Assembly (NCBI GenBank): GCA_025201365.1 | Contig: JAIXMF010000160.1 | Span: 1-28,884 of the forward strand | Reading direction: 5' to 3' | DNA length: 28,884 bases | DNA from: Syncephalis plumigaleata | Lineage: Eukaryota > Zoopagomycota > Zoopagomycetes > Zoopagales > Piptocephalidaceae | Shown here: piece after piece, positions 9,528 through 28,296 of the stretch | Layout of the letters: every line of letters begins with the position of its first letter | Position numbering within the stretch: position 1 is the first letter of the stretch | The notes under the pieces: generated by a model | The model's input: the letters and a program-made list of their open reading frames with translations, nothing else | Told to the model about the DNA's origin: nothing | Database searches by the model: none | Program-made: the position numbers and the translations under genes

Positions 9528-10482
9528 TCATCGACATATAGCGGTGTGTTTACATGAGCTGTTACAATGGTATACGAGAATCGATGATGTAAATAGCCTA
9601 ATGTCGCAATCAATATTAGTACGATAAGAGGGGATTGATGCTCTCATTTACTTACCAGTCTACAACGAAGAACATATCGGCAAACTTGCCACCCACCTCT
9701 AATACAAGACAGGTGGCGCAGAATATGTTGCAAATAACGGCTAGACACATGATTTGTATACCGTCATGCGCCAGCTCTTTCCACGCCTCCATTCCGTAGC
9801 CCTTGTAGTGTTTATACGCTATATAGCTGAACAACGCCGAGAATAGAACGTTAATGGGTATGGTCAGTCCAAACCAGTAGAACGGCACGAATGTCTCGTA
9901 ATGAATGGCACAGCCACCGTTAACATTGATGGTTACCCAGGATGACATTAGGAATATTGGCATGAATGCTATTTGAGGTATGATAAGTAGAAGACCGAGT
10001 ATCAGAACCTGTTTCTGCTGCATGAGTATGATATACGCTTTCTGTAGAACGATAGCGCTATTACTTGCACTGGAGAGTGTTGTGGCAATCACGAAGAACC
10101 ATACGACGGGTCGACAACTCGATTGGTCCAACAGATATAGGATGACGCCGAATCCCCAGCCTGTGCCGAGAATCGCCGGTACTAAGCAGAACCAGCCTGA
10201 TAGTACGCGTGGACGCTTAGCGATCATGACTAGAGTGATAAATAGATTTCGTACGAATATCGTCGACATCATAAGATCGACAGATAGTTCAAAGTAAAGA
10301 CTCAGCATTCTAAGCTGCGTTTCCCGTATATCATAGTGCATCTCGACCACATAATCGTACAAGAGCATTTCACCCGTTGGATGAAGGGGAATCCCCCATA
10401 GTCTAGTGGCGTTTATTCTCCAGTCCACGCTTTCTTCTCTCAAATACTGCATGGTCGTTATCGTCGTGATTGTCGTATTCAT
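9528..10482 (-). CDS. Orphan seven-transmembrane, GPCR-like protein A
   Basis: Two exons (9656-10482 and 9528-9597) encode 298 residues. I see seven hydrophobic helices, about residues 58-88, 97-118, 126-150, 158-180, 198-223, 241-263 and 268-290. The short N-terminus has an N-glycosylation site (NAT 24-26) and WGIPLHPTGEM. C123 lies before helix 3 and C191 in the loop before helix 5, a spacing that suggests the classical GPCR disulfide. The loop between helices 5 and 6 reads AYKHYKGYG, AWKEL and DGIQIMCL. The intron splits the TGG codon in helix 7, as in paralogues B-D. The C-terminal tail is very short and Cys-rich (HCNSSCKHTAICR). Met1 and Met11 are both possible starts. No DRY, NPxxY or opsin lysine is present; ligand and coupling are unknown. 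The 3' end converges on VWA8 with 60 bp between stops. Confidence 0.85.
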
Positions 10483-10723
10483 ATTGATCGATGATGTTAT
10501 TTCGTGTATGTGTATGTATGTATGCGTATGTGCTCCTATTCGTATTCATACTAATAGTAATAAAATAATAAGAATATAGCCATGAACCTATAGGATGATG
10601 ATGATGATGATAATGGTGCTGATGATGTTGGAGAGGAACCGAGAGAAGGGAATGGAAATAAGATGCTAGTAAAAAAAGTTCGGCAATTAGGCGGATACTT
10701 GAGGATTAACCGAAGGTGCCATA
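10483..10723. promoter_or_regulatory. Upstream region of 7TM gene A
   Basis: This is the native sequence left between the start of gene A and the retrotransposon target site. It contains TGTATG/GTATGT and GATGAT simple repeats and no recognisable regulatory motif. The retrotransposon now lies within 250 bp of this gene's start codon. Confidence 0.5.
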
Positions 10724-10728
10724 GGATC
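10724..10728 (+). repeat. Target site duplication GGATC, left copy
   Basis: GGATC immediately precedes the 5' LTR and is repeated exactly at 16146-16150 after the 3' LTR, the 5-bp duplication expected for Ty3/gypsy integration. Confidence 0.93.
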
Positions 10729-11004
10729 TGTGATGATGTCTACCGTTTTCGGTAGAATCATGTCATGATTAACAGCCCCTCCAAGTATAAATAGGTCCAA
10801 CTAGAACCTATCTATCATTATCGAACAAAAAAGCTATCTTTTATCCCCTCTCTCAATAAAAAGCGTTTATACCTTTCGAAAATCCTCTCGTTTATTTGAT
10901 ATTGCAAGTATAGAATCGTAGCGTAAAGGTATATTTACTGGAACCTACGATTACGGGTCTTTGATATTAACCCAATTACACGCTGTTCTCACTAGAACGC
11001 CACA
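10729..11004 (+). repeat. 5' long terminal repeat
   Basis: Begins TGTG and ends CACA. It holds TATAAATA at 10786-10793 as likely promoter, AATAAA at 10855-10860 as likely polyadenylation signal, and a perfect 7-bp stem with TTTT loop (TCTACCG/CGGTAGA) at 10739-10756. Confidence 0.96.
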
Positions 11005-11006
11005 AT

Positions 11007-11025
11007 TGGTGGAGAACCCGGGCGG
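11007..11025 (+). other. Retrotransposon primer binding site
   Basis: Two bases after the 5' LTR, TGGTGGAGAACCCGGG begins with the TGG expected to pair with the CCA end of a tRNA. I cannot assign the tRNA from memory. From here to the gag start at 11215 is untranslated leader. Confidence 0.65.
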
Positions 11026-11214
11026 TATCAATCGTAAAGATACTGCCAACTATACTTACAATAACAAATATACACCTCGTCTCTCCCCTCGCTCTCGCTC
11101 TCTTCGTTTTTACGCCTATAATATCACGAGTCATATATTATCTTACCTTATTTCTTTTATATATTTCCTTTACGTCCCTTAACGACCTTACCACAGCTTC
11201 TGGTACACAACTGC

Positions 11215-12354
11215 ATGTCCCGCGAGTTGCGAGCTCTAGCCAACGATCCACACAACGCACATATCATGGCTACATTGCAGCAACCTGGCCAAGACAACCA
11301 GCCAGACGCAGGACCTGCCCCTCGTCGAGATGCCGCGCCCAACCGTGTCGAAGGTACCCCTGTTCCAGCACACGAGGACCTTGCAAACCCTTTCGGCGAG
11401 TACACGCCAAATGCTCGCCGAGTTTGTGAACTCGTGAACGGTGTAGCAACCCGATTAGATGAACTACAAGTTAACGAGCAGAATCAAGTGCAAGAGTTTC
11501 TCAACGCACACCAACGACGCCACGATTTAGCTCACCTATTTCGGAATGCTGCGCCCACGCATCAAGTCAACTTCCCGCCAGTACTCCCTCCCATCAAGAT
11601 TGAAGAGTACGATAGGAAGAAGGAGGACTTCTACACGTGGCTTACTCGTTTTGAACTTATCGTCGCCAAATACGAGCTGCTCAACGACGAGAGTATTCAC
11701 CAGCTCATGATTGCCATGAGTCGCTCATACCCTCAATGGGCCCGCACCACGAGTTTGGCGCTGGATCAACGTCCGATGACGTACGGTGACGTGCTAAATA
11801 GCTTAAAACGACATGTACTCGGTGGCGACCCCATCGATAAGGCGATGTTGCAATTCCGCCAGACACGTTACCGATCGCCGGAAACGTTACGAAGCTACGC
11901 CAATCGTATCACCGAAGCTGCCCTCAACGCCAATCAAGGACCGGAAGAACAATGGACGCAATTCCGATGTGGCCTTCCGGAAGATTTACGCTCGCACTTG
12001 ACGTTACACCGCATCACTAATTGGGAACAGATGATGGACTTTGTGGATGATCTCGATGTATTAACCAAGCAACGCAAGTCACATACTGTCGCCGCCCTCG
12101 ATATACCCAATCCTGATCCGGTTGTAGCTCACGCCGCTCCTCGCCCACAACAGAATGCTCATCGTAGACCTAACACCAACCGTCCTCGTCCAGTCACTCG
12201 TAGCTGCTTCCTTTGTGAGGGTACGGATCATTTCAAGAATGATTGCCCTTACGCTGACGCTATCCAGGAAGCGATTCGACAAAAACGCAATGCACCTGCA
12301 GAACGGAATGTCGAGGCTGACGTCAATACTGGCGTGCAGCAGACGGAAAACTAG
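11215..12354 (+). CDS. gag: Retrotransposon Gag polyprotein
   Basis: Structural protein of the Ty3/gypsy element, 379 residues, first ATG after the leader. A Pro/Ala-rich N-terminus is followed by a retrotransposon gag core (FYTWLTRFELIVAKYELL, then about residues 150-290). A single zinc knuckle of the form C-x2-C-x4-H-x4-C lies at C331, C334, H339 and C344 (CFLCEGTDHFKNDC) and should bind the RNA. The TAG stop is at 12352-12354, directly after GGAAAAC. The pol frame overlaps the end of gag in the -1 frame. GC content is higher and codon use different from the surrounding host genes. Confidence 0.95.
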   Translation: MSRELRALANDPHNAHIMATLQQPGQDNQPDAGPAPRRDAAPNRVEGTPVPAHEDLANPFGEYTPNARRVCELVNGVATRLDELQVNEQNQVQEFLNAHQRRHDLAHLFRNAAPTHQVNFPPVLPPIKIEEYDRKKEDFYTWLTRFELIVAKYELLNDESIHQLMIAMSRSYPQWARTTSLALDQRPMTYGDVLNSLKRHVLGGDPIDKAMLQFRQTRYRSPETLRSYANRITEAALNANQGPEEQWTQFRCGLPEDLRSHLTLHRITNWEQMMDFVDDLDVLTKQRKSHTVAALDIPNPDPVVAHAAPRPQQNAHRRPNTNRPRPVTRSCFLCEGTDHFKNDCPYADAIQEAIRQKRNAPAERNVEADVNTGVQQTEN

Positions 12355-15300
12355 AACGGGTGTGTGCCATTGAGGCCGCGCACGCCCAAAATGCTGATAA
12401 GTCCTCGGTAACCTTCGCTACAAGCAAAACCTCCAGCCAAGGTATTATGCTCGTAACCGGTACCATCGGTGGAACCGCATCAGATATGTTAGTAGATACT
12501 GGCGCGCAATGTACAGTGGTGACTCAAGATCTCTGTCGACAAATCGGTCGAAAGTTACCCCCACACACTGCGTCCCAAGTAAGGTTAGCTGACGGCAAGT
12601 CCGTTCAAACTCGTGGTCGCATTTTAATTCCTATTAATGTGGCAGGAGTTAGCGCTACTATTAATGCTATCATCTTAGACATGGCTCCTTACCCTGTTTT
12701 GTTAGGTATGGACTGGCTGAGTCATCCTTCGATTCGTGCCAATGTGAATTGTTATGATGGTATCATTAGTATAGCAGATCAACATGTGGAAACATCGGTT
12801 ATGACAGATATGTCTGGTGTACTAGCTATGCGCGTACAGTTTATCGCTGCTGATGACCCTTGGTCGTCTATACCTGTGAACGCGATAGTTCATGACACGT
12901 CCATTAATCATGTTGATGACAGAGTCGTTGAATCCCACTTCCCTACTACTGCAGTAGAGAAAGCCCGTTGTGAAGAGAAAATGAATCATTTATTACATCA
13001 GTATCATCGTGTTTTTGCTATTAATCCTAAACGTCCCGGCATCGTCACCAAGACGAAACATCGTATTGACACCGGCGACTGTTTACCTATCAACTCTCCG
13101 CCTTATCGTTCATCTTTCAAGCAGCGCGACAAGATCTCTCAAGAAGTGCAAGAAATGTTGAAGAACAATATCATCGAACCATCTCATAGTCCCTGGGCAT
13201 CACCGATCGTACTCGTTGGTAAGAAGGACGGAGGTGATCGATTCTGTGTCGATTATCGACGTCTGAACGCTATCACGAAGAAGGACGTTTATCCTCTTCC
13301 TCGAATCGACGACGCGTTGGATGCTTTAGCTGGCGCTACCTGGTTTAGCACGCTAGATCTGGCCGCTGGTTATTGGCAGATCCCAATGTCTGATGCTGAC
13401 AAGGAGAAGACGGCGTTCATCACGAGCGATGGTCTTTATCAATTCCGCGTTATGCCCTTCGGTCTATGTAATGCACCAGCAACATTTCAGCGCATGATGG
13501 ATGAGGTTCTCGCAGGCTTGAAGTGGCGTACCTGTTTGGTATATCTTGACGACATCATTGTTTTCGGCCGCACTTTCGACGATATGCTAATCCGCCTTGA
13601 AGAAGTGTTCCTACGACTGATCAACGCTGGATTACGCTTGAAACGTTCTAAATGTCATTTCGCGCAACAAGAAATTGCATACTTAGGACACATCGTCGGA
13701 GCTCGTGGTCTCTTACCTGATACAAGTAAAGTTGACGCCGTACGCAAGTTCCCTCAACCTGTCGATATTCGTGGTATCAAGAGCTTCCTCGGCCTAGCAT
13801 CCTATTATCGTCGTTTCATCCCCAACTTCGCCACCATCGCTGAACCATTACGTCGACTAACCAAGAAAGGAGTACCATTTGAGTGGACACTCGAGCAACA
13901 ATCTTCTTTCGAGCGGTTACGACAGACCCTTTCCAGCGATGCTGTCCTCGCATTTCCGAAGTTTGACCGTCCATTCCGTGTTGAAACCGACGCGTCCTCT
14001 GTAGGATTGGGTGCCGTGCTTGCTCAGCAACACAACGATGAATGGCGACCAGTAGCTTATGCTAGTCGAGCTCTTTCTAAAGCGGAAAGTAACTATTCAG
14101 CCACTGAATGTGAATGTTTAGCTATAATCTGGGCTTTGGAAAAGTTCCGTCCTTACATTTATGGTTGTCCGTTCACCGTCGTCACAGATCATTCTGCTTT
14201 ACGATGGTTAATGAGTCGTCCCGTTTTAACTGGAAGGTTAGGACGATGGACCCTCAAGTTACAGGAATGTCAGCCCACCATCGAATACCGTAAAGGCACA
14301 TCTAATGCCAACGCGGATGCTCTTTCTCGTGATCCGTTGCCCTGGAGCCACTTCGTTAGCGAATGTACGACGAATCCCGACACACCAGATGAAGAAGTAG
14401 ACAGCAACGAACAGCGCGACTACCCGATACCACTTATCGAATCTCCAGCAATCGCCGCCGCCGTAGACGAAGATCCATCCGTGAACGAAGAGAGTTTGGC
14501 CAACTCGATTCCGACATTACCTACACCCGACGAATGGCGCGATGCTCAGCGTGACGACGTTGAGTTCGAAGGTGTTTACGCCTTCCTATCCGACAACAAG
14601 CCGTTCTTCGAGGAGGTTGGTTCCGAAATGCTACGCAAGATTCGACGCCGCGCTGAATCATACCGTATACAAGATGGCAAGTTACTACGCATTAAAAAAG
14701 GTCAACGACTTGTAGAAGTAGTACCCGCTGTCTACCGCCAAGCTGTATTATATCACAATCACGACGTCCCTACAGCTGGCCATTTCGGTGTCTATCGTAC
14801 ATTCAAGCGTATACAACAAGGTTATTGGTGGCCATCGTTATATCAAGATACTTACGATTATGTAATGTCTTGCCCGTTATGCAGTCGTCAACGCGCGCCC
14901 GCAAAACGCACAGGCTTGCTACAGTCTATTCCAACCCCTGAGCGACCTTTCGATCTAATCGCTATCGATTTGGTAGGACCATTCGAGTGTACTACTAAAG
15001 GTAATAGATATATAGCTGTGTGCGCCGACTACACGACACGATGGATCGAAGCTGCCGCCATACCGGACCCATCTGCTACTACGACCGTACAGTTCCTATT
15101 AGACTACGTTATCGCTCGTCACGGTGTTCCTCAAGCTTTACTTACCGACCGCGGTACAAATTTCACTTCCGATCTAACAGTACATGTCGCCAAAGCACTC
15201 GGTATTCAACAGCGACTTGCTACCGTTAGACGCCCGCAAACCGACGGATTGGTCGAGCGTTTTAACAAGACGCTAGCTAGCATGTTAGCCAAGTTCGTTA

Positions 15301-15827
15301 ATGAACAAGGCACCGACTGGGATACGTACCTACCACTATTAATGTTCGCTTATCGTTCCACGCCGCAAGCTTCTACTGGTCACACTCCATTCCAACTATT
15401 ATATGGCCGAGAAGCGCGACAACCACTAGACGCAGCAGTAAAAGGAGTTGAGCCTACGCAGATTCGACATGCAAAGAAGCGCGAAGATTACAGTAACTAC
15501 GTCGAAGAGTTACAACGTAGACTAGAAGACGTGAGAGAACGCGCTCTTGTCATGATTACAGCAGCTCAACAACGACAGTCTGCGAGGTACAATAAAAAGC
15601 GAAAAGGTGCTACGTACGAAGAAGGTGACTTGGTCATGGTCGAGAACACGAACCAAAAAGGATCGAAGTTAGAACGACTACGCAACAAAATGCTTGGACC
15701 ATACGAAGTGAAAAAGCAAACCAGAGCAGTCAATTATACCCTTGAAAAAGTAGGTACTAAGGAGATACTCCACACACACGCGGACAGGATGCAAAAATAC
15801 ATACCCAGAAGTACCACCCAGGAGTAG
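12321..15827 (+). CDS. pol: Retrotransposon Pol polyprotein (protease, RT, RNase H, integrase)
   Basis: The frame opens at 12321 after an in-frame TGA and has no ATG near its start, so it is probably reached by -1 frameshifting from gag around 12345-12354. Counting from the GTG at 12360: aspartic protease DTGA at 46-49; reverse transcriptase with YLDD at 395-398; RNase H with TDAS (D544) and VTDHSALRWL; integrase zinc finger H801/H808 with C838-P-L-C841; and the integrase core D870, D930, E966, which is a D-D-35-E arrangement with TDRGTN and VERFNKTL. A GPY/F-type segment (MLGPYEV) is near the C-terminus. The protein ends soon after HTHADRMQKYI, with no chromodomain. All catalytic residues checked are present. 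Confidence 0.96.
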   Translation, partial: RQYWRAADGKLERVCAIEAAHAQNADKSSVTFATSKTSSQGIMLVTGTIGGTASDMLVDTGAQCTVVTQDLCRQIGRKLPPHTASQVRLADGKSVQTRGRILIPINVAGVSATINAIILDMAPYPVLLGMDWLSHPSIRANVNCYDGIISIADQHVETSVMTDMSGVLAMRVQFIAADDPWSSIPVNAIVHDTSINHVDDRVVESHFPTTAVEKARCEEKMNHLLHQYHRVFAINPKRPGIVTKTKHRIDTGDCLPINSPPYRSSFKQRDKISQEVQEMLKNNIIEPSHSPWASPIVLVGKKDGGDRFCVDYRRLNAITKKDVYPLPRIDDALDALAGATWFSTLDLAAGYWQIPMSDADKEKTAFITSDGLYQFRVMPFGLCNAPATFQRMMDEVLAGLKWRTCLVYLDDIIVFGRTFDDMLIRLEEVFLRLINAGLRLKRSKCHFAQQEIAYLGHIVGARGLLPDTSKVDAVRKFPQPVDIRGIKSFLGLASYYRRFIPNFATIAEPLRRLTKKGVPFEWTLEQQSSFERLRQTLSSDAVLAFPKFDRPFRVETDASSVGLGAVLAQQHNDEWRPVAYASRALSKAESNYSATECECLAIIWALEKFRPYIYGCPFTVVTDHSALRWLMSRPVLTGRLGRWTLKLQECQPTIEYRKGTSNANADALSRDPLPWSHFVSECTTNPDTPDEEVDSNEQRDYPIPLIESPAIAAAVDEDPSVNEESLANSIPTLPTPDEWRDAQRDDVEFEGVYAFLSDNKPFFEEVGSEMLRKIRRRAESYRIQDGKLLRIKKGQRLVEVVPAVYRQAVLYHNHDVPTAGHFGVYRTFKRIQQGYWWPSLYQDTYDYVMSCPLCSRQRAPAKRTGLLQSIPTPERPFDLIAIDLVGPFECTTKGNRYIAVCADYTTRWIEAAAIPDPSATTTVQFLLDYVIARHGVPQALLTDRGTNFTSDLTVHVAKALGIQQRLATVRRPQTDGLVERFNKTLASMLAKFVNEQGTDWDTYLPLLMFAYRSTPQASTGHTPFQLLYGREARQPLDAAVKGVEPTQIRHAKKREDYSNYVEELQRRLEDVRERALVMITAAQQRQSARYNKKRKGATYEEGDLVMVENTNQKGSKLERLRNKMLGPYEVKKQTRAVNYTLEKVGTKEILHTHADRMQKYIPRSTTQE

Positions 15828-15859
15828 TGTATGACAATTCGTACGTATAATCATACACT

Positions 15860-15870
15860 GGAGGAGGTGA
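15860..15870 (+). other. Polypurine tract
   Basis: GGAGGAGGTGA directly abuts the 3' LTR and is the expected primer site for plus-strand DNA synthesis; a single T interrupts the purines. Confidence 0.8.
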
Positions 15871-16145
15871 TGTGATGATGTCTACCGTTTTCGGTAGAAT
15901 CATGTCATGATTAACAGCCCCTCCAAGTATAAATAGGTCCAACTAGAACCTATCTATCATTATCGAACAAAAAAGCTATCTTTTATCCCCTCTCTCAATA
16001 AAAAGCGTTTATACCTTTCGAAATCCTCTCGTTTATTTGATATTGCAAGTATAGAATCGTAGCGTAAAGGTATATTTACTGGAACCTACGATTACGGGTC
16101 TTTGATATTAACCCAATTACACGCTGTTCTCACTAGAACGCCACA
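15871..16145 (+). repeat. 3' long terminal repeat
   Basis: Same sequence as the 5' LTR with one base fewer in an A run near 16020. It carries the same TATA box, AATAAA and TCTACCG/CGGTAGA hairpin (15881-15898). Confidence 0.96.
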
Positions 16146-16150
16146 GGATC
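16146..16150 (+). repeat. Target site duplication GGATC, right copy
   Basis: Exact repeat of 10724-10728, confirming element boundaries. Confidence 0.93.
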
Positions 16151-16891
16151 TATATTAACAAATCACTATAATGACCACGATAGGCATCGTTTATCATTAG
16201 GATATTGGAAGGCAAACCTGTTTTTATTGTACATGAGTAACATGTTTGCGCACATGTTGAAAAGAGGAAATGGGAAATGGAATGAACAACACGAGCCAAT
16301 AAATTCTTCGCTGATTTGGACAGAACCTCGCTATGCTACTCACTAAGCGAGACTAACATTATCTGCCAATCATTGGTCAGAATCGCTTACATTGAGGTAG
16401 TATATGGAAAGTAGATCCGTATGAGATGGCATCAGATGAGGCCTTTAACGCGTATAAAATGCACGCGGATAGGTGCATGTATGTATGTATGCATGAATGA
16501 ATGAATGAATGAATGAAGTGACGACTTTTTTATTTCTTCTCTTTGACAGTTGATCAGTTTTTGATGAATTCATAAACGTGCCTCTAATCTGTCCTGTAGA
16601 TGAGCATGGGATTATAGCTGTTTATAGAGCAGAAATGAATACTGAATAGTTCACACTGAGAACAAGAGCTATCAGAATAGTGCAAGCTATGTTGCACTTT
16701 TATGTTATGCAGTCTTGACAGCCTATTGTTACTGTTGCTATTATCATTTCTTCCTGTTCTTATCTCTTCAATACTTGATCGATTTTGAGTTAAACCGTAC
16801 AGCATTTCAAATCAATGACATAACTGTTAGTTATAAAATAAAGTAATGGGTAAAGTTCATTTTAATATATTACTACAGGTGTTAATACACT
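16151..16891. other. Intergenic, between retrotransposon and 7TM gene B
   Basis: No supportable gene. It was contiguous with 10483-10723 before the insertion, so it may hold distal promoter sequence of gene A. It contains a GTAT/TGAA microsatellite at 16477-16517 and a CTCGCT...AGCGAG inverted repeat near 16330. The open frame at 16584-16805 has no family resemblance. Confidence 0.6.
16477..16517. repeat. (TGTA)n(TGAA)n microsatellite
   Basis: Tandem 4-bp units, TGTA then TGAA. Confidence 0.9.
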
Positions 16892-17926
16892 CTAATGCCA
16901 TTTTGAGCCGATTTCACTGTATATTTCAGCTTGGGTTAATTCCATGATATCATTGTCTTTTGTCATGGTTTGAATCGTGCTACGAGCGTCACCCTGATGA
17001 GATGATCTAAATGTTCTCTTTCCACCGGCATTACAATGAATAGAGAGAACGGTGGAGGTGACTAACCTAATAGGCGTAAATGAGAATAAGTCAGTTGACA
17101 AGGCATGAACACACGGCATTACCCACCAATCTACTATGAAGAACATTTCGGAGAAATCGCCCGCCACTTGTATGACGATGCAAGTCGCGCAGGATATATT
17201 ACACGCCACTACTAGACACATGGTCTGTATGCCCTTACGCGTCAGTCTTCTCCACGCATCTGATCCGTACTTTTTATATTGTTTATACGCGATAACACTA
17301 AAAGTGGCCGAAAATAAAAGATTGATAGGTGTGGTGGTGGCAAACCAGTAGATAGGCATGAGATAGTGGAATTTGGCACCGCAGCCTCCTTGTATGTCCA
17401 TGGTAACGTAGGATAATCGTAGACTTAGTGGCAGTAGCACAATTTGCGGCAATACAAGGATAATCCCCATAACTAGTACCAACTTGCTTTTCACGAAAAC
17501 AAGATAGACCTTCTGCAATACGATGGCGCTATTACACAGACTGGAAAGGAGGATTAAAAGGGCAAAAAACCAAATGATGATACGACAATTGAACACGTCA
17601 AATGCAAACGCTATCACGGATAATCCCCAGGAAATGCCAAGGGACGCGGAGATCAAGCAACACCAGCCGGATATAAAGTGAGGCATGCATTTAACGACAT
17701 TGAGCGATATTCGAAAGTTGTTCGCAAACATAAACATCATAATTGTGTTGCAACAGATTTGCAACAATATACTGAGCAGTCTAGCGCGAGTAATGTCTAA
17801 ATCATTGATCGTCTCCATGATAAACTCGGTCGTGTACATTTCACCGGTCGGATTAAGCGGGATACCCCATAGTGTCGAAGCATCTTTCTGCCAGTCAAGA
17901 TTATAGGCGCTTACGTGTGGCGTCAT
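16892..17926 (-). CDS. Orphan seven-transmembrane, GPCR-like protein B
   Basis: Exons 17127-17926 and 16892-17066 encode 324 residues. The frame extends ten codons further upstream, but only from a TTG, so the ATG at 17926 is chosen. It shares the family features: DWQKDASTLWGIPLNPTGEM at the N-terminus (the NAT glycosylation site of A, C and D is DAS here), seven hydrophobic segments, C114 before helix 3, C182 in the GGC of the loop before helix 5, and AYKQYKKYG, AWRRL and KGIQTMCL between helices 5 and 6. EMFFIVDW marks the start of helix 7, where the codon is split by a 60-bp intron with no stop, so retention would insert 20 residues in frame. The cytoplasmic tail after HCNAGGKRTF is about 45 residues and polar, longer than in A. 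Confidence 0.85.
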   Translation of the reverse strand: MTPHVSAYNLDWQKDASTLWGIPLNPTGEMYTTEFIMETINDLDITRARLLSILLQICCNTIMMFMFANNFRISLNVVKCMPHFISGWCCLISASLGISWGLSVIAFAFDVFNCRIIIWFFALLILLSSLCNSAIVLQKVYLVFVKSKLVLVMGIILVLPQIVLLPLSLRLSYVTMDIQGGCGAKFHYLMPIYWFATTTPINLLFSATFSVIAYKQYKKYGSDAWRRLTRKGIQTMCLVVACNISCATCIVIQVAGDFSEMFFIVDWWVMPCVHALSTDLFSFTPIRLVTSTVLSIHCNAGGKRTFRSSHQGDARSTIQTMTKDNDIMELTQAEIYSEIGSKWH

Positions 17927-18420
17927 AGGAGCAATAAGAGGAATAAATAGCGTCAATTAGAAGGAAGAAGTATCAAGGAATTATTGTATCGATAAATGAA
18001 TGCAGAAAAGGGGTAGTCGATGAATGTAATGCGCTTTAAGACGAAATTTCCTACGGCAACATTGCTGTGTATCGAGGTTTCCACGCTATGCGAAACCGGT
18101 TTACATATGTGCTTGGAAGGAATGATTGGTGCAGTTGAATGATTGTAATGGCCTATGTGGCATAATTAGATGCACCAAGCCTGGAACGAGAAAAGTAGAT
18201 GCTACGGGTAAACAGAACGAATTATCGAGGACGAGAGGAGAGGCAACAGGTTTACACGTATCCCAGACAATTTACGAGGTTGCAATGGTTATTGTATTGC
18301 TCGTGTTGCAACTTTAGCGATATTTAGAAGGATCATACCGATTTAGGAAGCATAGTTGTACAAATCTAATTGTAGTTAATACCAATTCGACTTTGTTTGT
18401 TTTTACCAAGTAGTAATATA
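17927..18420. other. Intergenic, upstream of 7TM gene B
   Basis: Presumed promoter region of gene B (minus strand). The open frame at 18126-18317 shows no recognisable domain and sits in AT-rich, non-coding-looking sequence. Nothing else is supported. Confidence 0.5.
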
Positions 18421-18577
18421 TAGGGTGTTTCCAATCAGTTAACACAGTTAGCGTTTAACTCTTATTTTTATTAATAAACAGTCTATTCAATTAATGGTGC
18501 TAATGAATGCGCAAAAGTATTTATTAATAACAAAAGTTAGTGTCTAACAATGTTAATTGGTTGGAGAAAGTCTTGTA
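18421..18577 (-). repeat. MITE-like foldback repeat, copy 3 of the short repeat family
   Basis: On the plus strand it begins TAGGGTGTTTCC and its arms form an imperfect inverted repeat of nearly 50 bp: CCAATCAGTTAACACAGTTAG facing CCAACCAATTAACATTGTTAG, and TTATTAATAAA in both arms. Its reverse complement shares TTTTGCGCATT, CTGTTTAtTAATAAA and TGTTAAC with the copies at 908-985 and 1359-1455, and the TACAAGACTTTCTCC end resembles TACAGACTTTTTC of copy 1. TA occurs at both ends, fitting a Tc1/mariner-type target. It ends 36 bp beyond the stop codon of 7TM gene C. Confidence 0.5.
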
Positions 18578-18613
18578 CAGCAGGTAATAACTAGAAAGTA
18601 GCCGCCTACCATT

Positions 18614-19648
18614 CTAATTTGTCTTTGTCAGTTGATTAGCGGATGATTGCTCATCATTCGGCGGATTCTCTACATCATGATCAGTATGACATAAGATGTT
18701 CTCGGTCTTTGGACGATTCGATAGAGAGATGGCCTTCCGCATGCTATAGCAGTGTCGGACGAGAATGATCGATATGAGCAGCCTGTATTACATCTGTTAG
18801 TTGACAACGTTCTATTCATCCGTATCATTGTTTACGTACCAGTCGACTAGGAAAAACATTTCCGATAATTTACCACCAATCTCAAATAGCATTCCACAGG
18901 CGCAGACTATATTGCACACGACTACGAGACACATTGTCTGGATGCCATCGCGCATCATTCGTTTCCATGCCTCGGATCCAAACGTGCGATACTGCTTATA
19001 CGCGACATAGCTGAATATTCCGGAAAACAATGCGTTAATCGGCGCTGTCGATCCGAACCAAAACCACGGCAGGAGTGACGAGTAATTGACGACGCAACCC
19101 GTGTCTGCAGCGACGGTCACGGGGCTAAGCATCCATCCAGCGTACATAAAGCCTAGTTGAGGCAGTATAAATATAATGCCAACGATCAACACCCATGGTT
19201 TCCGATAGAGTACGAGATACGCCTTGTGCAGCACGATGGCACTATTGCAAATAATAGTCGTTGTAATGGCGAATCCAACGAACCATGATATCCTACGACA
19301 AGTCAAACCGGTAGGAAACATCGATAAGGCTGCGATAAGTCCTGTCACTACACCTAATGCTGACGGGAATAGACAAAGCCATCCCGGTATCGAGCGTCGG
19401 TAAGTGGTGATGATTCTAACGGCGAGGTAAAAGTTATACACGAAAATATGGCCGGCCAACAGATTGAGTAGAAGCTGACGATACACCCCGAATATTCGAG
19501 CTCTAAACTGCTCCTGATCACTCGCCACTTCCATGATATAGTCTGGTAGTGATATCTCCCCTAGTGGATGCATTGGGATTCCTACTATGTAAGTGGCGTT
19601 CTTTATCCAATCAGTTCCAAGTTGATGATCAGTATGATCAAAAGGCAT
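18614..19648 (-). CDS. Orphan seven-transmembrane, GPCR-like protein C
   Basis: Exons 18840-19648 and 18614-18782 encode 325 residues. The open frame runs further upstream from a TTG, but the first ATG is at 19648 (MPFDHTDHQLG). N-terminus: DWIKNATYIVGIPMHPLGEI with NAT glycosylation site. C117 precedes helix 3 and C185 lies in the loop before helix 5. The segment between helices 5 and 6 is AYKQYRTFG, AWKRM and RDGIQTMCL. EMFFLVDW is followed by the family intron splitting the W codon, then LLISIILVRHC and a polar tail rich in Asn, Asp and Ser. B and C are adjacent in the same orientation, consistent with tandem duplication. Function is inferred only from topology. Confidence 0.85.
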
Positions 19649-20698
19649 TATAATGTCTAACAGAAAAAGGAATAAACAAGATAACAAAAGCTGCAAAGAA
19701 AACAGGCAAGCACTGTGTAGTAAGCAGCTGTTTTTCTTTTGCTAAATTATTCAAAATAATATAGAGTGAAGAAATAGCAACTAGTATGACGAGGGATAGT
19801 AAATAGAATTTACAAGTATATTGTGCGCGAATGAAAAGAAAAACCACCGCTATATTTGATGCTGCAAGTAGTCAGTGCTTGTATAGAAAAAAGATCCTCG
19901 AGTTAGCGTTACAGTCATGCAACCGGTGAGAATACCGTAGTTTTTTCGATCGAGCGGCAATGTCTATGATATGCGTGGTCATTGCTGTACACATACACAC
20001 ATGGTCATACGCACCAATGGCCGTGTTTATCAGCCGGTTTGCACGTACCCGACTTCATGCAGTAGGCAAGAACGTGCCACGAGTGTAACCACTAGACTAT
20101 TGGGCGTGTGCCTTCTAAATATATCTGACGCGCCTAGTATCCGGTTACCGCATGGAGGTAGATTGCAGATCTCGACTTGACCGTTACTTCCTTATTTTCT
20201 ATCTTTTTTTTACTAATGGATTTGCGGATGCACCACCTTTCTTACCAATATTAATGGATTACTATGACAAACGTGCGCAGTTTTGCCGATATCCGCGAGA
20301 AATGGGGATGATGCATTGGAGATGAATTAATAAACGGTTGACAGATATGCTTAGGTATACGTATATGAATATGCATAGTAATTGAGCGGCAATATTGTAT
20401 AAAGCATACGGCGTATTCATAATTAAGATTTATTCACCTATCGGTGGTAAAAGCACAGTTACATATTAATATATATATCATAGGATTCGTTAAAAAAGTG
20501 ATGGGAGAGTATAAGCGTAGGAAGGAGGAGGAGGAGGAGAAAGAAGAAGAATACGAACACATAATAATGGTTATAAACTATAAAAAAGTATTCTAATTAC
20601 TGTCAAACAAAAAAAAGATAGCACGTCAACTTCACGTACTCTCCTATAGTGAGCATTCTGCAATCTATTGGATGGAGGCCAGCTTCATCTCTAACACG
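19649..20698. other. Intergenic, between 7TM gene C and the carboxylesterase
   Basis: About 1 kb without a supportable gene. It should include the promoter of C and the 3' flank of the esterase. A GGAGGAGGAGG/GAAGAAGAA purine-rich run lies at 20520-20550. The open frames at 19638-19847 and 19971-20180 lack any recognisable domain. No tRNA-like structure was seen. Confidence 0.5.
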
Positions 20699-22957
20699 TT
20701 AGAATCGATAGCCAATCTTATTCTATTGTACATAGTCAGGTTAGCAGTAGACGGATAGCGATCATTAGTCCACTTACCCAGAACTTGCAATTAGCTTGAT
20801 GTGGTGGTGGTATCGGCTTTACTTGATTATCAAGGTTCTGATAGAGCGGTGCACTAATGCTATACACCGGCCAATCCTCGAGTTGCGTCATGAATTCCTT
20901 GTCCTTTGAGGGCACCTCAGTCGAAGGACCCTTGTTCGGATTGCCCGTCGTGGCAAAGTTAGTATAATAGGCGATCCATCGATCGGACAATCGCTCCTGC
21001 TTCTTGTTCATTGTAAAGTAGAAAGGCGCCCGCCATGTATAGGTGAGATCCACCGAGTGACAGGTACGTGTCCTACAAACGCCTGTTCTATAATTAGTAC
21101 CGCTGCGTAATTGATAGATATCCATACTGTGGCGTCACATCACGATGATGACTACCTACCAATGGGTGGGAATATGCCTTGTTGCGTAAAGTAATACATG
21201 TATACTTTACCACCATGACGTGTAATATCTCTGGCCACCTAGTTAATCGACATGATAAGCATGCTGTACAATATTCATCGTATGCATTATTCAGCATCAA
21301 GTACTGATCGTAATAGCTTACATCATCATTCGGGCATAGGAATTCGTAGTCTGTTCCAATTCTAATGTAACTATCGATGTTCTTCTCGATATTAACACCA
21401 TTCGGGTATTGAGTCTCGATCTATTAACATTATAATGTCAATAAGCTATATTATTGTCATCACTATCTCGATGATACTAACCATGGAGGTGGAGTTCTTG
21501 AATATCTTGCTCAATAATTCGGTGTATCCCTTGGAACTGAATAGTTTACTAGCTCCCGGTGATCCAGGCACATACAACATTTGTAATACCCAGAATCCGA
21601 GTTCATCCCTAATTACATACCGAGATTAATAATGAGTATTCCAATTTCATACGAATATTATCGTGCGATATCAACCAACGAGTTACTTACTGGGTGGTGC
21701 CTATAATTACAGGAACATTCTTGTTAAAATGACCGGATTGAAAGGCAATTCGTGGATTCTCCACAATGTTGTAGTCGTCAATGGAGGCCCACCATGCGAA
21801 TGGATCGGATAGCGAGGATGTTCCCGTTTGTTTACCGGTAGGTGCATTGGCCATGGCGTCGACAATCGTCTTCCACGGCTTCTTTCGCATGCAAACCATA
21901 TCGACCTTGCCGTCTTCTGTTTTACACCCGACAAGCTCGGCCAATTCCAGGCTGGTGTCACGGATATTCTTTTTGGTACGTGGTACAATGCCGAGTGGAT
22001 TCGACTGCATAATAACCCGATGAAATAGATTTGGCGGTGTTTTCGGCGACGTCAAATGGATACCGAGAGAGGTGGCGCCTGAACTGAAACCAAACAAGGT
22101 GATATTGTCAGGGTCACCGCCAAATGCACGAATATTACGCTTGACCCATAGCATGGCTGCGCGTTGATCTTCGATACCCGCATTACCGCGTAATTCGTCG
22201 GTGGCGAAGAATCCAAATGCATTTGTACGATGATTCGACGTAACAATGATAACATCTTTGTGTTCAGTGACAAAACGACCATTATAGAAATCGAACGAAT
22301 ACGAACTACCAAATGCGAATGCACCACCGAACACGTAGAACATGACGGGCAATGGCTTGTCAGGTTTGATTTTGTCGGCAGGCGGTACGAATACATTAAG
22401 ATAGAGACAATCCTCTGAGCGTCCCAATGACAAGAAATGCTGCGGACAATCATCGGGATAATTGGTGGCATCGCGAATGGTGCCATAAGGTTTGCCATTG
22501 GCATCGATACCGCCCCATGTTTCATTAAATGGAGCGGGTGGAGCAAATCGGAGATCATTCACAGGTGCTGCAGCAAATGGGATACTATTTACTAGTTAGC
22601 TAGTTGGCCAGTTGTTTATTCAATTCCTTGTACTTACCCTGCGAATACACGTGGATGACTAGTGATATACTTGTCGCGATTGAATAGCTCTAAAAATCGT
22701 TCACGCCAAGTAAGATTGTTTCTACCGCGTACTCGACCATATTCCGTGGGGATGACAAGGGCAGGATGATCGGATATAGTGGACGTTTGATTTGCATTCA
22801 AATATTGGTTCACTTTCTCGATCGGTGCAAGATCTTTAAAGATCGATGCGATATCACCATCTACATGTCTGGCCTGACCAACTGGCGTTGTAGTCAATTG
22901 AACAAATAAAAAAATAAAGGAAAACTTCGTTAAAAAATCAATCATCATCATCATCAT
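20699..22957 (-). CDS. Secreted type-B carboxylesterase/lipase (alpha/beta hydrolase)
   Basis: Hydrolyses carboxylic esters; substrate unknown. Seven exons on the minus strand (22638-22957, 21691-22584, 21482-21608, 21322-21420, 21160-21238, 20778-21082, 20699-20722) give 615 residues. Five consecutive ATG codons make the exact start uncertain. MIDFLTKFSFIFLFVQL...GQA looks like a signal peptide, so it is probably secreted. Family landmarks: GIPFAAAPVNDLRFAPP, the type-B signature EDCLYLNVFVP, oxyanion-hole region YVFGGAF (G193-G194), and nucleophile S274 in GFSSG. The acid is probably E407 (GTTQDELGFW) and the base H515 (CHSVDL). FATTGNPN follows as usual near the C-terminus. The nucleophile elbow has Phe where most relatives have Glu (GESAG). 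The 3' acceptor of exon 6 (AACAG at 21083-21087) was chosen to keep the conserved His in frame. Confidence 0.94.
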
Positions 22958-24228
22958 AAAGAGGAAATAATTTATGGCGACAAAAAGTAAAAAGGAAAAA
23001 TAAGGGAAGAATAGCGCGAAATGGCAATGTCACTGGCTAGTTTAAAAAGAAATGTCAATCCAAGATGACGATGGTGGCGATGATGGTAATGATGCTAGGG
23101 AGACCGATAGTACTACTTTGATAGTTATACGGAGATTCATTTAAGGAGTAGTGGAGATGTAAAATCGTAATAATAATGGTAATAATAAAATCAAAACAAA
23201 GACAATTTATAGATGTACCACGTTACACTGCCATCCCGATGTTTGTGGAGTTCTTTTTATTTCCTACGATAGGTGGGTGCAAGAACTGTAAGGTAGAGGA
23301 GCATCGAGTGTGGCGTGATGTCTCCCCGCTCTTCACGACAATACTATTTAGTAGATGAGCGGTCGTTGAATATTGAAAAGTACGCACGCACACAAGTATA
23401 CCTCATGAGTATGAAGCTTTATTGAGTAAGATGGCATGTTTTTTTCGTTCGTTTCAACACCATATGCGATCTACCGTTACCCGCTTTGGGATATCGCAGA
23501 ACCAGTTGGACGGGTTTCAGATAGAGGCCTTGCCGAAATAGTCAAACTATTGACTGACTGGCTAACTAATTAGCCACTATGATGTGCTGCACTTTCTTGC
23601 TTCCTAGTATTACACATCCACATCCACCGTATTATTGATGTGTATATCATATATGTATATATCAATAGCATCAAAGGCAATAATGATGTACCTGTCTTGT
23701 ACTTGCAAAGATCGGTCGTGTCAACCTGACGATCTGTGTTCTAGTTCAACTTGGATGTAGATCTAGTTGTATCAAACATAACAGCAATGATTGTAATAGT
23801 GATTGATTTTGTTTTCTTACTCTAACACAATACATCGCAGTCAACTCGTCCTCCACACGTGTATATTTGTGTATATTTATGTATGTTTGTGTATGTATAT
23901 GTATGTGTCGTACCAAGCCATATCCATGACATCAACGTCTAACATGAGCAAATAACTAGGCAATGTAAGACTTTTCTCGGGTAGTACACGAATGGTACTG
24001 TCAGGCCAGTTAGCTTAATTCATGGTCATTGATTGTGGCCTAGTACAACGCTATCCATTCTCAATGAATAGAGTGAGTTGTAAACAATGACTTTTTTAGT
24101 ATTAGTAACACATGTACAAGCACGCATCATTAGTGTAACGAAATCAACAGTATGGTTATACATCATGAAGTATGAAAAATGACGTATTTTATTTATTGCC
24201 GTACATTCCATCAAACTATAATACCGTG
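22958..24228. other. Intergenic, between carboxylesterase and DONSON
   Basis: 1.27 kb with no gene I can support. It should contain the esterase promoter at its left end and the DONSON 3' flank at its right. A TGTATGTTTG-type repeat occupies 23860-23910. A minus-strand open stretch at about 23900-24015 looks weakly coding but could not be connected to a start or a family. Confidence 0.5.
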
Positions 24229-26570
24229 CTAGTAGTCTTCATTTGATACAGCAACAGGTAGTGCATCGCATAACGACGTACTCGTCATTAATTGTCGTCG
24301 AATTTCGACATTTGGATGTTTCAGTTGCACGATATGTACAAGTTGTTGCAGACCCGTAGGTAGAACGATACCATGTATTTCAAGTCGATGACATTGCATT
24401 TCCCTACCATTATCATAGCTGAGGATGGTACGTTCCTCGCCCATCTACGTGGAAGCAAACAAACGAACAAACAGATGAATAGTCAGTTAGCCAGTGTGTG
24501 CGTATCAATCGCATATGGATAAGCCATTCTGACTTGTTAGTGTTGTGAACAAGCACGCGTACTCACCTGTGCTTGTCCAATAGATGCGTTAAGAAACGGC
24601 ACCGGAGATACGAGGTGCGGATAGCATGATTGACGCGCGTAGCTTGGATGAGTATCCCAAGCATGAGCTAGTTTAATCAGTTGCTTGAGGGATTTTGGAT
24701 TCGCCACCAGCAATAATTCCTCATGATTAGAGTTGCGCCTATTGTTACAGGAACAAGAAGTGGTTAGGCTAAGCCATTACAACTATTGATTGCCGTCAAT
24801 AGGTTAATAGTGCCAGTAGATCAATTTACCGAACAGTCCTAAAGACCTCCACTGGGTACTCCTTCTCTAGTCGTATGTATTCAATGCCTGTACAAACAAC
24901 ACATGAGTTAGACATGTTATACACGGTCTAGAACCAGGATAGCCTACCATTTCGTTCTAGATAATTGGTTATACCGATAACATGCGTGGTGATTAGCGCG
25001 GCCCTTTCACGTACGGCATCATGTACAGTTAGACAACGATGTACGGGTGATTTCACCGCAGAGAATAATATGGTCATATGGTTGCCGATATAGTAGAAAT
25101 ACGTATTTGCATGCGCGTTATAATGAGCAATAAGCGATTCAAATGCACGCTGCCTAATCGCGCAAGTATTAGCATTACTTTGCGGCTTATATGTTGTATT
25201 GATCGTATTACCGCAGCCTTCACTTACCATGTCTTTTTCAAAGTGTGTAACCGTTCTAATTCTGCTTTGGCCACATTGCTACTATGCTGGCTACCGGTCA
25301 ATGCTTGTAGCGCAGCTATTGATTGAGCCTGACTCGGTTGCTCCACCGGATATTGCCAATAATGAAGACTGGATAGTAGTTTAATCTGGTGATTGACATC
25401 GGTTGCATCGTTGAATGTCGAACCGTGAATGAACATTTGTAATGCCTGCATTTCATGATATGGTTCTTGCTCTTGCTCTATAATTTTATCAGCAGCAAAC
25501 AGCAATGTTTTTTGCGGTAAGCCCCATCCAAATGGCTCCACTTGTGTCTAATCGATCTAGTTTAGACATCACAATTATGTCACGTCTATCCGTTCATCTC
25601 ACCTGATAGAATGCAGCCATAGATGCAGTTGACTATGAATATTGGATTGTTAGCATACGTATCATTATGTATCTGCGATTACTTACCGACATTGGTTTCC
25701 CTACTATAGACGACACTTGTTCCTTTGCATTGTAAGCATCATCACTATCGTCAGTATCGTCGTCAGTATCGTCGTCGTCGTCGTCGCTGTCATCGTCGTC
25801 ATCACTCTCCTCTTCTTCGTCTTCGTCTTCTTCATTTTCATCTATACTATTATCTTCATATTTGAAATAATAGGCACTCATATTAGATTTATCTACTGTG
25901 TCTGGTACGGATTGTTGTTGTTGTTTACTATTCTTAAATATATAAATTGCATCTGTATCTTCATGTTGTCCGTTAGTTGTAGTTGGCGTGTCACGATACA
26001 AAGTTCGTTGTCTCTTGGCTCTTAACGCGACTTTTCCCGAATTCTGATGACGATGAAGTATCGCGTCAAACGACATTGCTTCATCGTCTAGATGCAAGTG
26101 TCCATTATTCCTATAATTATTGGATGTCGCCATTGAGCTAGATTGGTTATTTCGTTTGAATATTGATGTGGTCACGTTCATTTGATCATCGCTTAGTATA
26201 TCATCTTTGGCATGACGGTAAGATTTGTGTAGAGCTGAAAGTGGCTGCTTGCTTGTTAGCGAATCCAACGGTGCTTCAAATCCACCAGTGGCTGCTGCTC
26301 TTTGTCTACTGCCATTAAGTTCATTGCTACTACTATCACTATTACCAGTAATACTATTGCTTCGAACGGCAAATGGATTGTTACTTGTACGCGCTGTCAC
26401 TCCTTTGGCCTGTAGAGTCGGTTGAACTGTAGACGATTGAGACGCTGCGTTGACATTAACAGCTGGACTCAGTAATCTCTACTACGCCTATTAGCATACT
26501 ACACTTTATTATGCTCTATTGCTCCATTACTTACACGTAATAATGATTTCTCCGCGTCGTAATTACTCAT
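24229..26570 (-). CDS. DONSON: DONSON homologue, replication initiation/fork protein
   Basis: In animals DONSON helps deliver GINS to MCM during CMG helicase assembly and protects forks; this role is inferred here. Eight exons (26535-26570, 25687-26478, 25603-25632, 25228-25547, 24948-25153, 24830-24887, 24567-24738, 24229-24444) give 609 residues. The N-terminal 276 residues are disordered, with an NPF motif and a Glu/Asp tract (about 224-259). The folded part follows the DONSON pattern: PFGWGLPQKTLLF, a SLHYWQYPVE block, FESLIAHYNAHANTYFYYIG...MTILFSAV, LLLVANPKSLKQLIKLA, PHLVSPVPFLNASI and CHRLEIHGIVLPTGLQQLV. Similarity is dispersed rather than strong, so the call rests on order and spacing of these blocks. 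The protein stops soon after DALPVAV, earlier than the animal protein. It is divergent from 7TM gene D. Confidence 0.8.
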
Positions 26571-27185
26571 CGTGCCAATAATAGTGTTAAAAAAGAGGAA
26601 TTCAACGTTATTATTCAATCTAAAAAAACCAACACGCAAAGTGTAATCTATTTACCACGTGATTATATCCAGATCAATTCATGTGGGATGCGCAATTGCA
26701 AGATCATCCTACAACACTGAATCGTCACTAACACGTCCAATTCAACCGACATTCTATGGACTATACAGTAACTACCGTGTAGTCTAATTATCCCTAGTAA
26801 TACCCGTATAAAGAGTGGTTACATCTATCCTTGTACACGAAGTGCATATTGCCGAACAAACTAGTATATCTTGTAGATGTGCCATCAATGTGGGTAAGAA
26901 CCTGTTTATCTTCGGGTAAAGCTATTCACGCAACTAAGCATGCGATGCCTTCTGCCATACGCATTACCATAAATAATATATGGCCTGTACACAGTATAGT
27001 AATCAAGGTAGCCAGGCCGTATAAGCAGCGTGGAAAATGCAGCTCTTACACGAATCAACCATTGAATTACTCGTTCCACCTTTGTCTTTTTTTAAATTTT
27101 TGTTTATTCAATACTTGATACTCTTATAATTAATATCTATACATATCTATATCTATATCTATCTATATCATCTTGCTAATTACAA
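26571..27185. promoter_or_regulatory. Divergent intergenic region between DONSON and 7TM gene D
   Basis: 615 bp between two divergent start codons. A CACGTG palindrome is at 26656-26661, about 90 bp upstream of the DONSON start. An ATATCT-rich simple repeat at 27126-27172 lies immediately upstream of gene D. The open frame at 26831-27118 starts with a non-ATG codon and has no domain resemblance. Confidence 0.55.
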
Positions 27186-28296
27186 ATGGGAACAACCATT
27201 GGTAAAGAATGGGAATCAAACGCCACGTTAATGTGGGGAATTCCACTACATCCAAAGGGCGAAATAAGCATCGAATCGTTCGTACTGGCCGATCCTAATG
27301 ATGTGCAACTCGTAAGAGAACGTATCCACGGGCTATACTGTCAACTGCTGTTCAACGTGACACTCGCCTATATATTTATGCGAAACTTTCATATATCCAT
27401 TAAGATGGTGATAAAACGAGTGAAAACCCTTCCCGGTTGGTGCTGTCTCATACCTTCAATATTCGGTATGAGCATAGGTATTTTAGCGATCGTATCCCTT
27501 CTGCCCGTGAATCTATCATGTCGCGAGATTGCTTGGTACGTTGGCTTTGCCATCACATTCTGTCTATTATGCAACAATATCATTGTACTACAAAAAGCCT
27601 ACCTTGCTTTGTGTCGACCACGCTGGGTACTGATTGTTGGTGCCTTGCTGATGATACCACAACTAGGCTACGTGTGCGCCGCGTGGCTACTTAGCCCGGT
27701 GACCCTGACTAGTGGAAGCGGCTGCACCGTACATTATCCCGATTTCCTGCCGGTGTACTGGTTCGGCTCGATCCTGCCATTGAACATGCTCTTCTCCACT
27801 GTCTTCAGTTACGTTGCCTATAAACAGTACAAAGCATATGGGTCCAAAGCATGGAAACGTATGGCACGCGATGGCATCCAGACAATGTGTCTAGTGGTGG
27901 CATGTAGTATCACATGCGGGCTTATTATCATGTTCCGTATGGGAGGCGATCTATCCGAGATGTTCTTCCTCGTCGATCGGTAAGTAAAGCATTCTTATGA
28001 CCGCGTAAATAGTCGCGAATACAAATCATCAACAGCAGTGGTAGTAACAAGCAAATGTGTCACTCTATTCTAGACTGGTCACCTCGACCATCCTGGTCAA
28101 TCATTGTTGTAGCATGCGTAGAATTGCCGATGAATCCAGAAATGAATCCAATTCATCTTCCCGTCGTCGTCAACAGGGTAATCCACTGGAGCATAATGAC
28201 GGATTACTGGACAATAAGCAACAAATGCAACTAGACAACGACTGGACATCCATTTCGTTACTGACAAAGAATACGATCCACAATAGGATGGGTTAA
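27186..28296 (+). CDS. Orphan seven-transmembrane, GPCR-like protein D
   Basis: Exons 27186-27979 and 28074-28296 encode 338 residues, the longest of the four paralogues. N-terminus: EWESNATLMWGIPLHPKGEI with an NAT glycosylation site. C112 (SCREIAWY) precedes helix 3 and C180 (GSGC) lies in the loop before helix 5. The helix 5-6 loop is AYKQYKAYG, AWKRM and RDGIQTMCL. At the start of helix 7, EMFFLVD is followed by Arg where the others have Trp, and this codon is split by the intron as in the paralogues. LVTSTILVNHC completes the helix, and a hydrophilic tail of about 60 residues follows, rich in Arg, Ser, Asn and Gln, a plausible cytoplasmic signalling tail. It lies on the opposite strand to A-C and some 7.5 kb beyond C, so it moved or duplicated with inversion. 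Confidence 0.85.

What the first reader, a model, noticed from the sequence alone, without database searches (positions are those of the whole stretch)
9528..28296. Cluster of four paralogous orphan 7TM proteins with a GPCR-like layout
Genes at 9528-10482, 16892-17926, 18614-19648 and 27186-28296 encode one family. Conserved blocks: W..(N/D)A(T/S)..WGIP.HP.GE, GW.CL.PS..G, C-R before helix 3, NSAIVLQKAYL after helix 3, G-C before helix 5, P.N.LFS..FS..AYK.Y...G..AW, GIQ.MCL and EMFF.VD(W/R). I do not recognise any named GPCR class. A local array suggests lineage-specific chemosensory or environmental receptors, which is inference.
Basis: partly seen in the sequence, partly recalled or inferred. 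Interest (0 to 1): 0.78.

Follow-up and report, generated by a model that had tools for sequence, protein, structure and literature searches.

The report
Expanded orphan fungal GPCR-like receptor family
Four genes in this stretch belong to a large family of membrane proteins in one fungus that is built like the G-protein-coupled receptors animals use to smell and taste, yet matches no named receptor family; it probably lets the fungus sense chemicals.

Summary
Four intact paralogues sit at exactly the stated coordinates (42-50% identical, 298-338 aa), each with one phase-2 intron inside helix 7. They are the tip of a family with 150 match places in this 32.6 Mb fungal assembly; 88 of the 150 lie on large contigs, suggesting roughly 80-90 genes once alternative-haplotype contigs and fragments are allowed for. 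Forty non-redundant members share two invariant cysteines placed as in the class A disulfide, with K/R exactly 25 residues after the first in 39 of 40, the spacing recalled for class A R3.50. Loop charges point to an extracellular N-terminus in 40 of 40; inner helix halves are more conserved than outer ones. AlphaFold models are moderate (pLDDT 62 and 54), but the 50 listed Foldseek PDB rows of each are GPCRs. No Pfam GPCR family matches any of the 40. The genome holds two Galpha genes and 26 RGS matches. Best reading: an unnamed, expanded GPCR-like family, probably chemosensory and G-protein coupled. Ligands, coupling, species and distribution in other fungi are untested.

The parts
9656..10482 (-). 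gene A, exon 1 (TM1-TM6 and first half of TM7)
   Evidence: open frame, family alignment, GT donor at 9655
9528..9597 (-). gene A, exon 2 (second half of TM7, short C-terminal tail); intron 9598-9655
   Evidence: restores the TM7 motif DWLFTSSILVYHC; 298 aa in all
17127..17926 (-). gene B, exon 1 (TM1-TM6 and first half of TM7)
   Evidence: structure models
16892..17066 (-). gene B, exon 2 (second half of TM7, cytoplasmic tail); intron 17067-17126 happens to be open in frame
   Evidence: 324 aa in all; spliced model scores above unspliced (L036)
18840..19648 (-). gene C, exon 1 (TM1-TM6 and first half of TM7)
18614..18782 (-). gene C, exon 2 (second half of TM7, cytoplasmic tail); intron 18783-18839
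   Evidence: 325 aa in all
27186..27979 (+). gene D, exon 1 (TM1-TM6 and first half of TM7)
   Evidence: query
28074..28296 (+). gene D, exon 2 (second half of TM7, cytoplasmic tail); intron 27980-28073
   Evidence: 338 aa in all

Best explanation
The four genes are members of a large, locally duplicating family of short GPCR-like receptors in a fungus. Each protein has seven helices, a short extracellular N-terminus (about 45 residues in D) without a separate ligand domain, a class-A-like cysteine pair that would tie the top of TM3 to ECL2, and a strongly conserved cytoplasmic face (end of TM3, TM5-ICL3-TM6, inner TM7). Proposed working: a small molecule, lipid or peptide binds in the variable outer half of the bundle; the conserved inner face, chiefly the ICL3/TM6 block QY...GS.AWK.L..(D/E)GIQTM and the (K/R)AYL block at the DRY position, passes the change to one of two heterotrimeric G proteins, with RGS proteins ending the signal. 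Diversification of the outer half after duplication would give the fungus a chemosensory repertoire. Shown: gene structure, family size, conservation pattern, invariant cysteines, charge bias, presence of Galpha and RGS genes. Predicted: GPCR fold and topology. Inferred: disulfide, G-protein coupling, ligand sensing, plasma-membrane location.
For: Four intact paralogues under purifying selection. 150 match places genome-wide, 88 on large contigs, clustered beyond chance. TM7 intron in phase 2 at the same codon in 37 of 40 representatives, in phase 1 at that codon in one more. C112 and C180 in 40 of 40, K/R at C112+25 in 39 of 40. Positive-inside bias for N-out in 40 of 40; N-terminal N-glycosylation sequon in 22 of 40 against 8.7 on average (maximum 17) in 200 shuffles. 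Inner TM halves more conserved than outer (1.72 vs 2.38 bits, p 1.2e-7), intracellular loops more than N-terminus and extracellular loops (1.80 vs 2.29 bits, p 0.003). AF2 model with a hairpin in ECL2; 50 of 50 listed Foldseek PDB rows are GPCRs for each of two models, and 50 of 50 listed VIA rows for each. Two Galpha genes and 26 RGS matches, haplotype copies included.
Confidence: 0.72

Rival explanations
1. They are GPCR-like receptors, but for mating or self/non-self recognition (multi-allelic pheromone-type receptors) and not for environmental chemicals.
Against: No STE2 or STE3 Pfam match in 40 of 40 members; the family is spread over 16 large contigs and not at one mating locus.
Confidence: 0.12
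2. They are transporters or other non-receptor membrane proteins that happen to have seven helices.
For: NCBIfam Na+/H+ antiporter subunit C is matched in 4 of 40 members, best E 3.6e-5 (L037, the other-haplotype copy of gene B); Pfam CorC_HlyC in 2 of 40 at E 0.0051 and ECF_trnsprt in 1 at 0.037.
Against: The NCBIfam matches score 14.7-23.8 bits against a cut-off of 127 and cover only about three helices; 36 of 40 members lack them. Listed PDB fold matches are GPCRs; the conserved cytoplasmic face and extracellular Cys pair are receptor-like.
Confidence: 0.07
3. They are GPCR-like proteins that work without a G protein, as argued for some fungal 'GPCR' classes.
For: Several named fungal GPCR classes lack proof of coupling, and class IV may hold vacuolar transporters (PMC13308352, passages). 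Only two Galpha genes.
Against: N-terminal sequons above chance and an extracellular Cys pair fit a surface protein; ICL3 is the most conserved region (1.23 bits), as expected of a G-protein contact.
Confidence: 0.05
4. They are 7TM ligand-gated ion channels of the insect OR/GR (GRL) kind.
For: Large, clustered, divergent 7TM chemoreceptor-like family; single GRLs are reported from the chytrids Spizellomyces punctatus and S. palustris (PMC7746228, passages).
Against: GRLs have a cytoplasmic N-terminus and longer intracellular than extracellular loops; here N-out is predicted in 40 of 40. No insect-receptor or DUF3537 family is among the 17 listed for 40 members. No OR/GR structure is among the 50 listed Foldseek rows of either model, which does not exclude it.
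Confidence: 0.04

Closest known systems
Class A (rhodopsin-like) GPCRs, Pfam 7tm_1
   Same: N-out 7TM, short N-terminus, Cys before TM3 and in ECL2, basic residue 25 after the first Cys, ECL2 hairpin in the model, Pro in TM5 (38 of 40), most of the listed Foldseek rows
   Different: No 7tm_1 profile match, QKAYL or ERAYL for DRY, no CWxP, DW in place of NP in TM7
Fungal GPCR classes I-XVII (Ste2, Ste3, Git3, cAMP-receptor-like, RGS-linked, PAQR, Pth11 and so on; Liu et al. 2025, PMC12842992; review PMC13308352; passages of both)
   Same: Fungal 7TM receptors; Pth11-like receptors are similarly expanded, in Pezizomycotina
   Different: None of the class-marking Pfam domains is listed for any of 40 members; the family is not among the classes named in the passages read
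Expanded GPCRs of Entomophthoromycotina found by Pfam (125 in Conidiobolus coronatus, PMC12387763; [quoted passage not shown] passages of both)
   Same: Receptor set of about 100 genes in an early-diverging fungus; in C. coronatus read as host and environment sensing
   Different: Those are found by Pfam; here 7tm_1 finds nothing in the members or in the genome (without a positive control)
DUF6534 proteins of Agaricomycotina, proposed new GPCRs (PMC12842992, passages)
   Same: Orphan expanded fungal 7TM family proposed as GPCRs
   Different: DUF6534 is not listed for any of 40 members

Membership tests
GPCR superfamily (structural sense) | Seven TM helices, extracellular N-terminus, cytoplasmic C-terminus | tested here: met
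   Hydropathy of the four window proteins (TM5 of C under the threshold) and charge bias in 40 of 40; prediction only, no experiment
GPCR superfamily (structural sense) | GPCR fold | tested here: inconclusive
GPCR superfamily (functional sense) | Ligand-dependent activation of a heterotrimeric G protein | not testable with these tools
   Two Galpha genes exist in the genome
Class A (rhodopsin-like) GPCR | Profile match to Pfam 7tm_1 | tested here: not met
   Not listed for any of 40 members at E <= 1
Class A (rhodopsin-like) GPCR | Cys 3.25 and Cys in ECL2 (disulfide) | tested here: met
   C112 and C180 in 40 of 40; the bond itself is inferred
Class A (rhodopsin-like) GPCR | (D/E)RY at the end of TM3, R 25 after Cys 3.25 (spacing recalled) | tested here: inconclusive
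   K/R at C112+25 in 39 of 40 and Y at +27 in 39 of 40, but an acidic residue before it in only 4 of 40
Class A (rhodopsin-like) GPCR | CWxP in TM6 and NPxxY in TM7 | tested here: not met
   TM6 consensus CNIxC without the motif; TM7 DW, followed by no PxxY
Fungal classes I-XVII by Pfam domain | Match to STE2, STE3, Git3, PQ-loop, Dicty_CAR, RGS, 7tm_2, HlyIII, Bac_rhodopsin, Lung_7-TM_R, ABA_GPCR, DUF3112, Solute_trans_a, CFEM, 7tm_1, 7tm_3 or Frizzled | tested here: not met
   None is among the 17 families listed for 40 members at E <= 1; only 4.1% of class XIV carry CFEM, so for that class the test is weak
Microbial (type 1) rhodopsin, class IX | Retinal-binding Lys in the last helix (recalled) | tested here: not met
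   No conserved Lys in the TM7 columns shown; Bac_rhodopsin not listed
Insect OR/GR-like (GRL) channels | Cytoplasmic N-terminus | tested here: not met
   N-out predicted in 40 of 40; criterion from PMC7746228

The most novel reading that the evidence does not exclude
This is a class of fungal GPCRs outside the 17 named ones, independently expanded to some 80-90 genes as the main chemoreceptor repertoire of a fungus that appears to lack a flagellum. It keeps the class A cysteine pair and a basic residue at the R3.50 position but has replaced the DRY, CWxP and NPxxY switches by its own (K/R)AYL, ICL3 WK.L..(D/E)GIQTM and DWL.TS motifs, so it would show a different activation switch on a shared scaffold.
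Probability: 0.45. Interest if true: 0.78.

Novelty: new variant of a known kind. Interest (0 to 1): 0.62.

Why it matters
Sensing in early-diverging fungi is poorly known, and surveys there count receptors that existing profiles find; a family of some 80-90 genes that no profile finds means such counts can miss the largest receptor family of a genome. If it couples to G proteins it gives ready material for finding ligands and for asking which switch motifs a GPCR can do without.

Tried and rejected
Zoosporic chytrid as host: considered first (size, GC, Galpha). Dropped because the dynein heavy chain stalk domain (PF12777) has a single match in the whole genome, where axonemal dyneins would give many (recalled); radial spoke 3 gave none but had no positive control. 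A Batrachochytrium dendrobatidis diagnostic primer (recalled) has no match at up to 2 mismatches, which alone proves little. Ten chitin synthase matches over 400 bits, haplotype copies included, speak for a fungus, though that family also rang in 4 of 14 control genomes (bacteria). 'Early-diverging' rests on the Dicty_CAR matches and the class C matches near RGS domains read with the literature, and is inference. The species was not identified.

Relatives elsewhere: viral contigs and genome contigs with the four-sequence exon-1 alignment gave no relative; these hold viruses and prokaryotes, so this says nothing about other fungi. PDB by sequence: nothing credible with 4 or 40 sequences (best E 0.44 and 0.024, unrelated proteins). 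NCBIfam antiporter match: the four members were found by single scans (L037, L030, L032, L013; one search scanned ten others without it) and it was rejected as far below the cut-off. A class A repertoire: PF00001 gave 0 matches in the genome, without a positive control. Viral fold library: many of the 50 listed matches are viral GPCRs. No OR/GR channel, PAQR or microbial rhodopsin appears in the listed PDB rows, which does not exclude them.

Literature: eight searches on receptors brought up no paper that, by its listing or the passages read, describes this family; a ninth was about diagnostic primers and its papers were not opened. Only open-licence PMC text is held, and Liu et al. report 1,969 clusters of 141,666 fungal 7TM proteins not identified as GPCRs, among which it may already lie unnamed.

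Rows dropped: 58 family loci were modelled; L079 (frame broken early) was left out, and L028 returned its neighbour's gene, so its own match is not represented; 57 models gave 40 clusters at 90% identity. The other match places were not read. Eight of the 150 places are pieces under 450 nt, two of them side by side on C135 and probably one gene. A 61-nt intron call in L035 is probably misplaced by a few codons.

Full report
Observation. The four genes are real. Removing one GT..AG intron from each gives proteins of 298, 324, 325 and 338 aa at exactly the coordinates given. The intron splits the codon after the invariant D of the TM7 motif (W in three genes, R in D). The four are 42-50% identical, with 76 columns identical in all four (counted).

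Scale. A search of the window's own genome (32.6 Mb, 383 contigs; the window is the whole of contig C69) with protein D gave 119 matches, 118 gene places and one second exon. A divergent member as query gave 150 matches: all 118 places again and 32 new ones, so 150 places on 54 contigs, of which eight are pieces under 450 nt. The tool says that such counts are lower bounds. 88 places lie on 16 contigs of at least 140 kb, judged by known length or by the position of a match, and 62 on smaller ones. Small contigs are often second haplotypes: the window itself matches contig C46 at 95.5-98.7% in the six aligned pieces of four loci compared, and 16 of the 40 clusters of modelled proteins hold near-identical copies. 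So 80-90 genes is an estimate, not a count. Of the 88, 42 have a neighbour within 10 kb, against a mean of 9.1 and a maximum of 24 in 500 random placements; the contig lengths used are lower bounds, which makes the random figure too high if anything. The largest run (30 kb rule) has seven genes on C46, 279-341 kb, and includes the alleles of the window's four. In a tree of 40 representatives A groups with B and a gene on C146 (bootstrap 100), C with D (88), and some local sets are clades (four genes of C35, three of C2, the C13 pair with its C276 copy), while other genes of those contigs fall elsewhere. So arrays grow by local duplication, but the window's array holds two older lineages.

Gene structure. 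58 loci were modelled; 54 have a phase-2 intron of 52-100 nt; the profile gains a median of 25.8 bits from splicing over all 58. The profile was built from the four window genes, which are themselves among the 58. In the 40 representatives the intron splits codon 265 (D numbering) in phase 2 in 37 and in phase 1 in one (L090); two differ (L035, probably a misplaced call; L078, no usual second exon found). Sixteen near-identical pairs give pooled pN/pS 0.15; of ten paralogue pairs eight have a computable dS and give dN/dS 0.14-0.52, three of them with dS over 2, that is near saturation.

Anatomy. In 40 representatives five residues never change: C112 before TM3, C180 in ECL2, Y215, W223 and G230 in ICL3 and at the start of TM6. 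From C112 to position 137 is 25 residues in 40 of 40, and position 137 is K or R in 39; that is the distance recalled for class A from Cys 3.25 to Arg 3.50. Position 139 is Y in 39, but an acidic residue precedes 137 in only 4. CWxP and NPxxY are absent; in TM7 position 264 is D in 38 and 265 is W in 33 of 40. Intracellular loops have 0.22 K/R per residue and extracellular parts 0.07, and the bias points to N-out in 40 of 40. An N-glycosylation sequon occurs in the N-terminus of 22 of 40, against 8.7 on average and 17 at most in 200 shuffles. Conservation is lopsided: inner TM halves 1.72 bits of entropy, outer 2.38 (p 1.2e-7); ICL3 1.23, TM2 outer half 3.03; ICL1, against the trend, 2.58. The region borders were set by hand from hydropathy and the model, and the columns are not independent of the tree, so the p values are indicative.

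Sequence families. Pfam has no credible match in 40 members: 17 families listed at E <= 1, none a GPCR family, at most two members each, best CorC_HlyC at E 0.0051. The PDB by sequence has none. NCBIfam has a weak antiporter-subunit match in 4 of 40, judged chance: 23.8 bits at best where 127 is the cut-off.

Signalling context. The genome has two Galpha genes about 11 kb apart on C340 with copies on C257, 26 RGS matches, 10 weak 7tm_3 matches (one over its cut-off), several with an RGS domain close by on the same strand, and Dicty_CAR-like places, three on C112 and three on C231. A Galpha partner is therefore available; Gbeta and Ggamma were not searched. With two Galpha genes and some 80-90 receptors, many receptors would share a pathway.

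Comparison. Fungal GPCRs are sorted into 17 classes (PMC12842992, passages; PMC13308352, passages). None of the class-marking Pfam domains is listed here. [quoted passage not shown] So a large receptor family in such a fungus is not itself new; a large one that no profile sees is. Liu et al. left 141,666 fungal 7TM proteins in 1,969 clusters not identified as GPCRs, so the sequences may be in print as unnamed proteins.

Verdict. A GPCR-like receptor family outside the named classes, expanded to some 80-90 genes, most likely chemosensory. It works like a class A receptor on the evidence of layout and predicted fold; it is not filed as a class A member, because the profile, CWxP and NPxxY tests failed.

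Noticed in passing
window 10730-16145: Ty3/gypsy-type LTR retroelement (domain order RT, RNase H, integrase) with LTRs of about 275 nt (two repeat blocks, each 100% identical) and a GGATC target duplication, between genes A and B; absent from the matching contig C46, so a haplotype-specific insertion.
   Followed up: partly
window 8149-28884 (contig C69): The window is an alternative-haplotype contig of C46 (stretches at about 305-320 kb compared, 95.5-98.7% identical); the assembly holds both haplotypes of many regions.
   Followed up: partly
G000 C12 (copy C1), C35:503-505 kb, C46:518-520 kb, C318:722-724 kb, C362:271-273 kb: Class C (7tm_3) matches, all but one under the cut-off, lie just upstream of an RGS domain on the same strand, at C12/C1 and C46 in frames of equal length: candidate 7TM-RGS fusion proteins. 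At C35:705-707 kb the order is reversed.
   Followed up: no
G000 C340:1095-1109 kb: The genome's two Galpha genes lie about 11 kb apart in opposite orientation.
   Followed up: no
window 20739-22595 (-): Two stretches of a type-B carboxylesterase (COesterase) between receptor genes C and D; whether the gene is intact was not examined.
   Followed up: no
G000 C351:319.5-321.3 kb and C140:15.2-17.0 kb: A receptor family member stands tail to tail with an RGS-domain match.
   Followed up: no
G000 C329:136253-137257: The only dynein heavy chain stalk domain match in the genome, which suggests a fungus without flagellum.
   Followed up: partly
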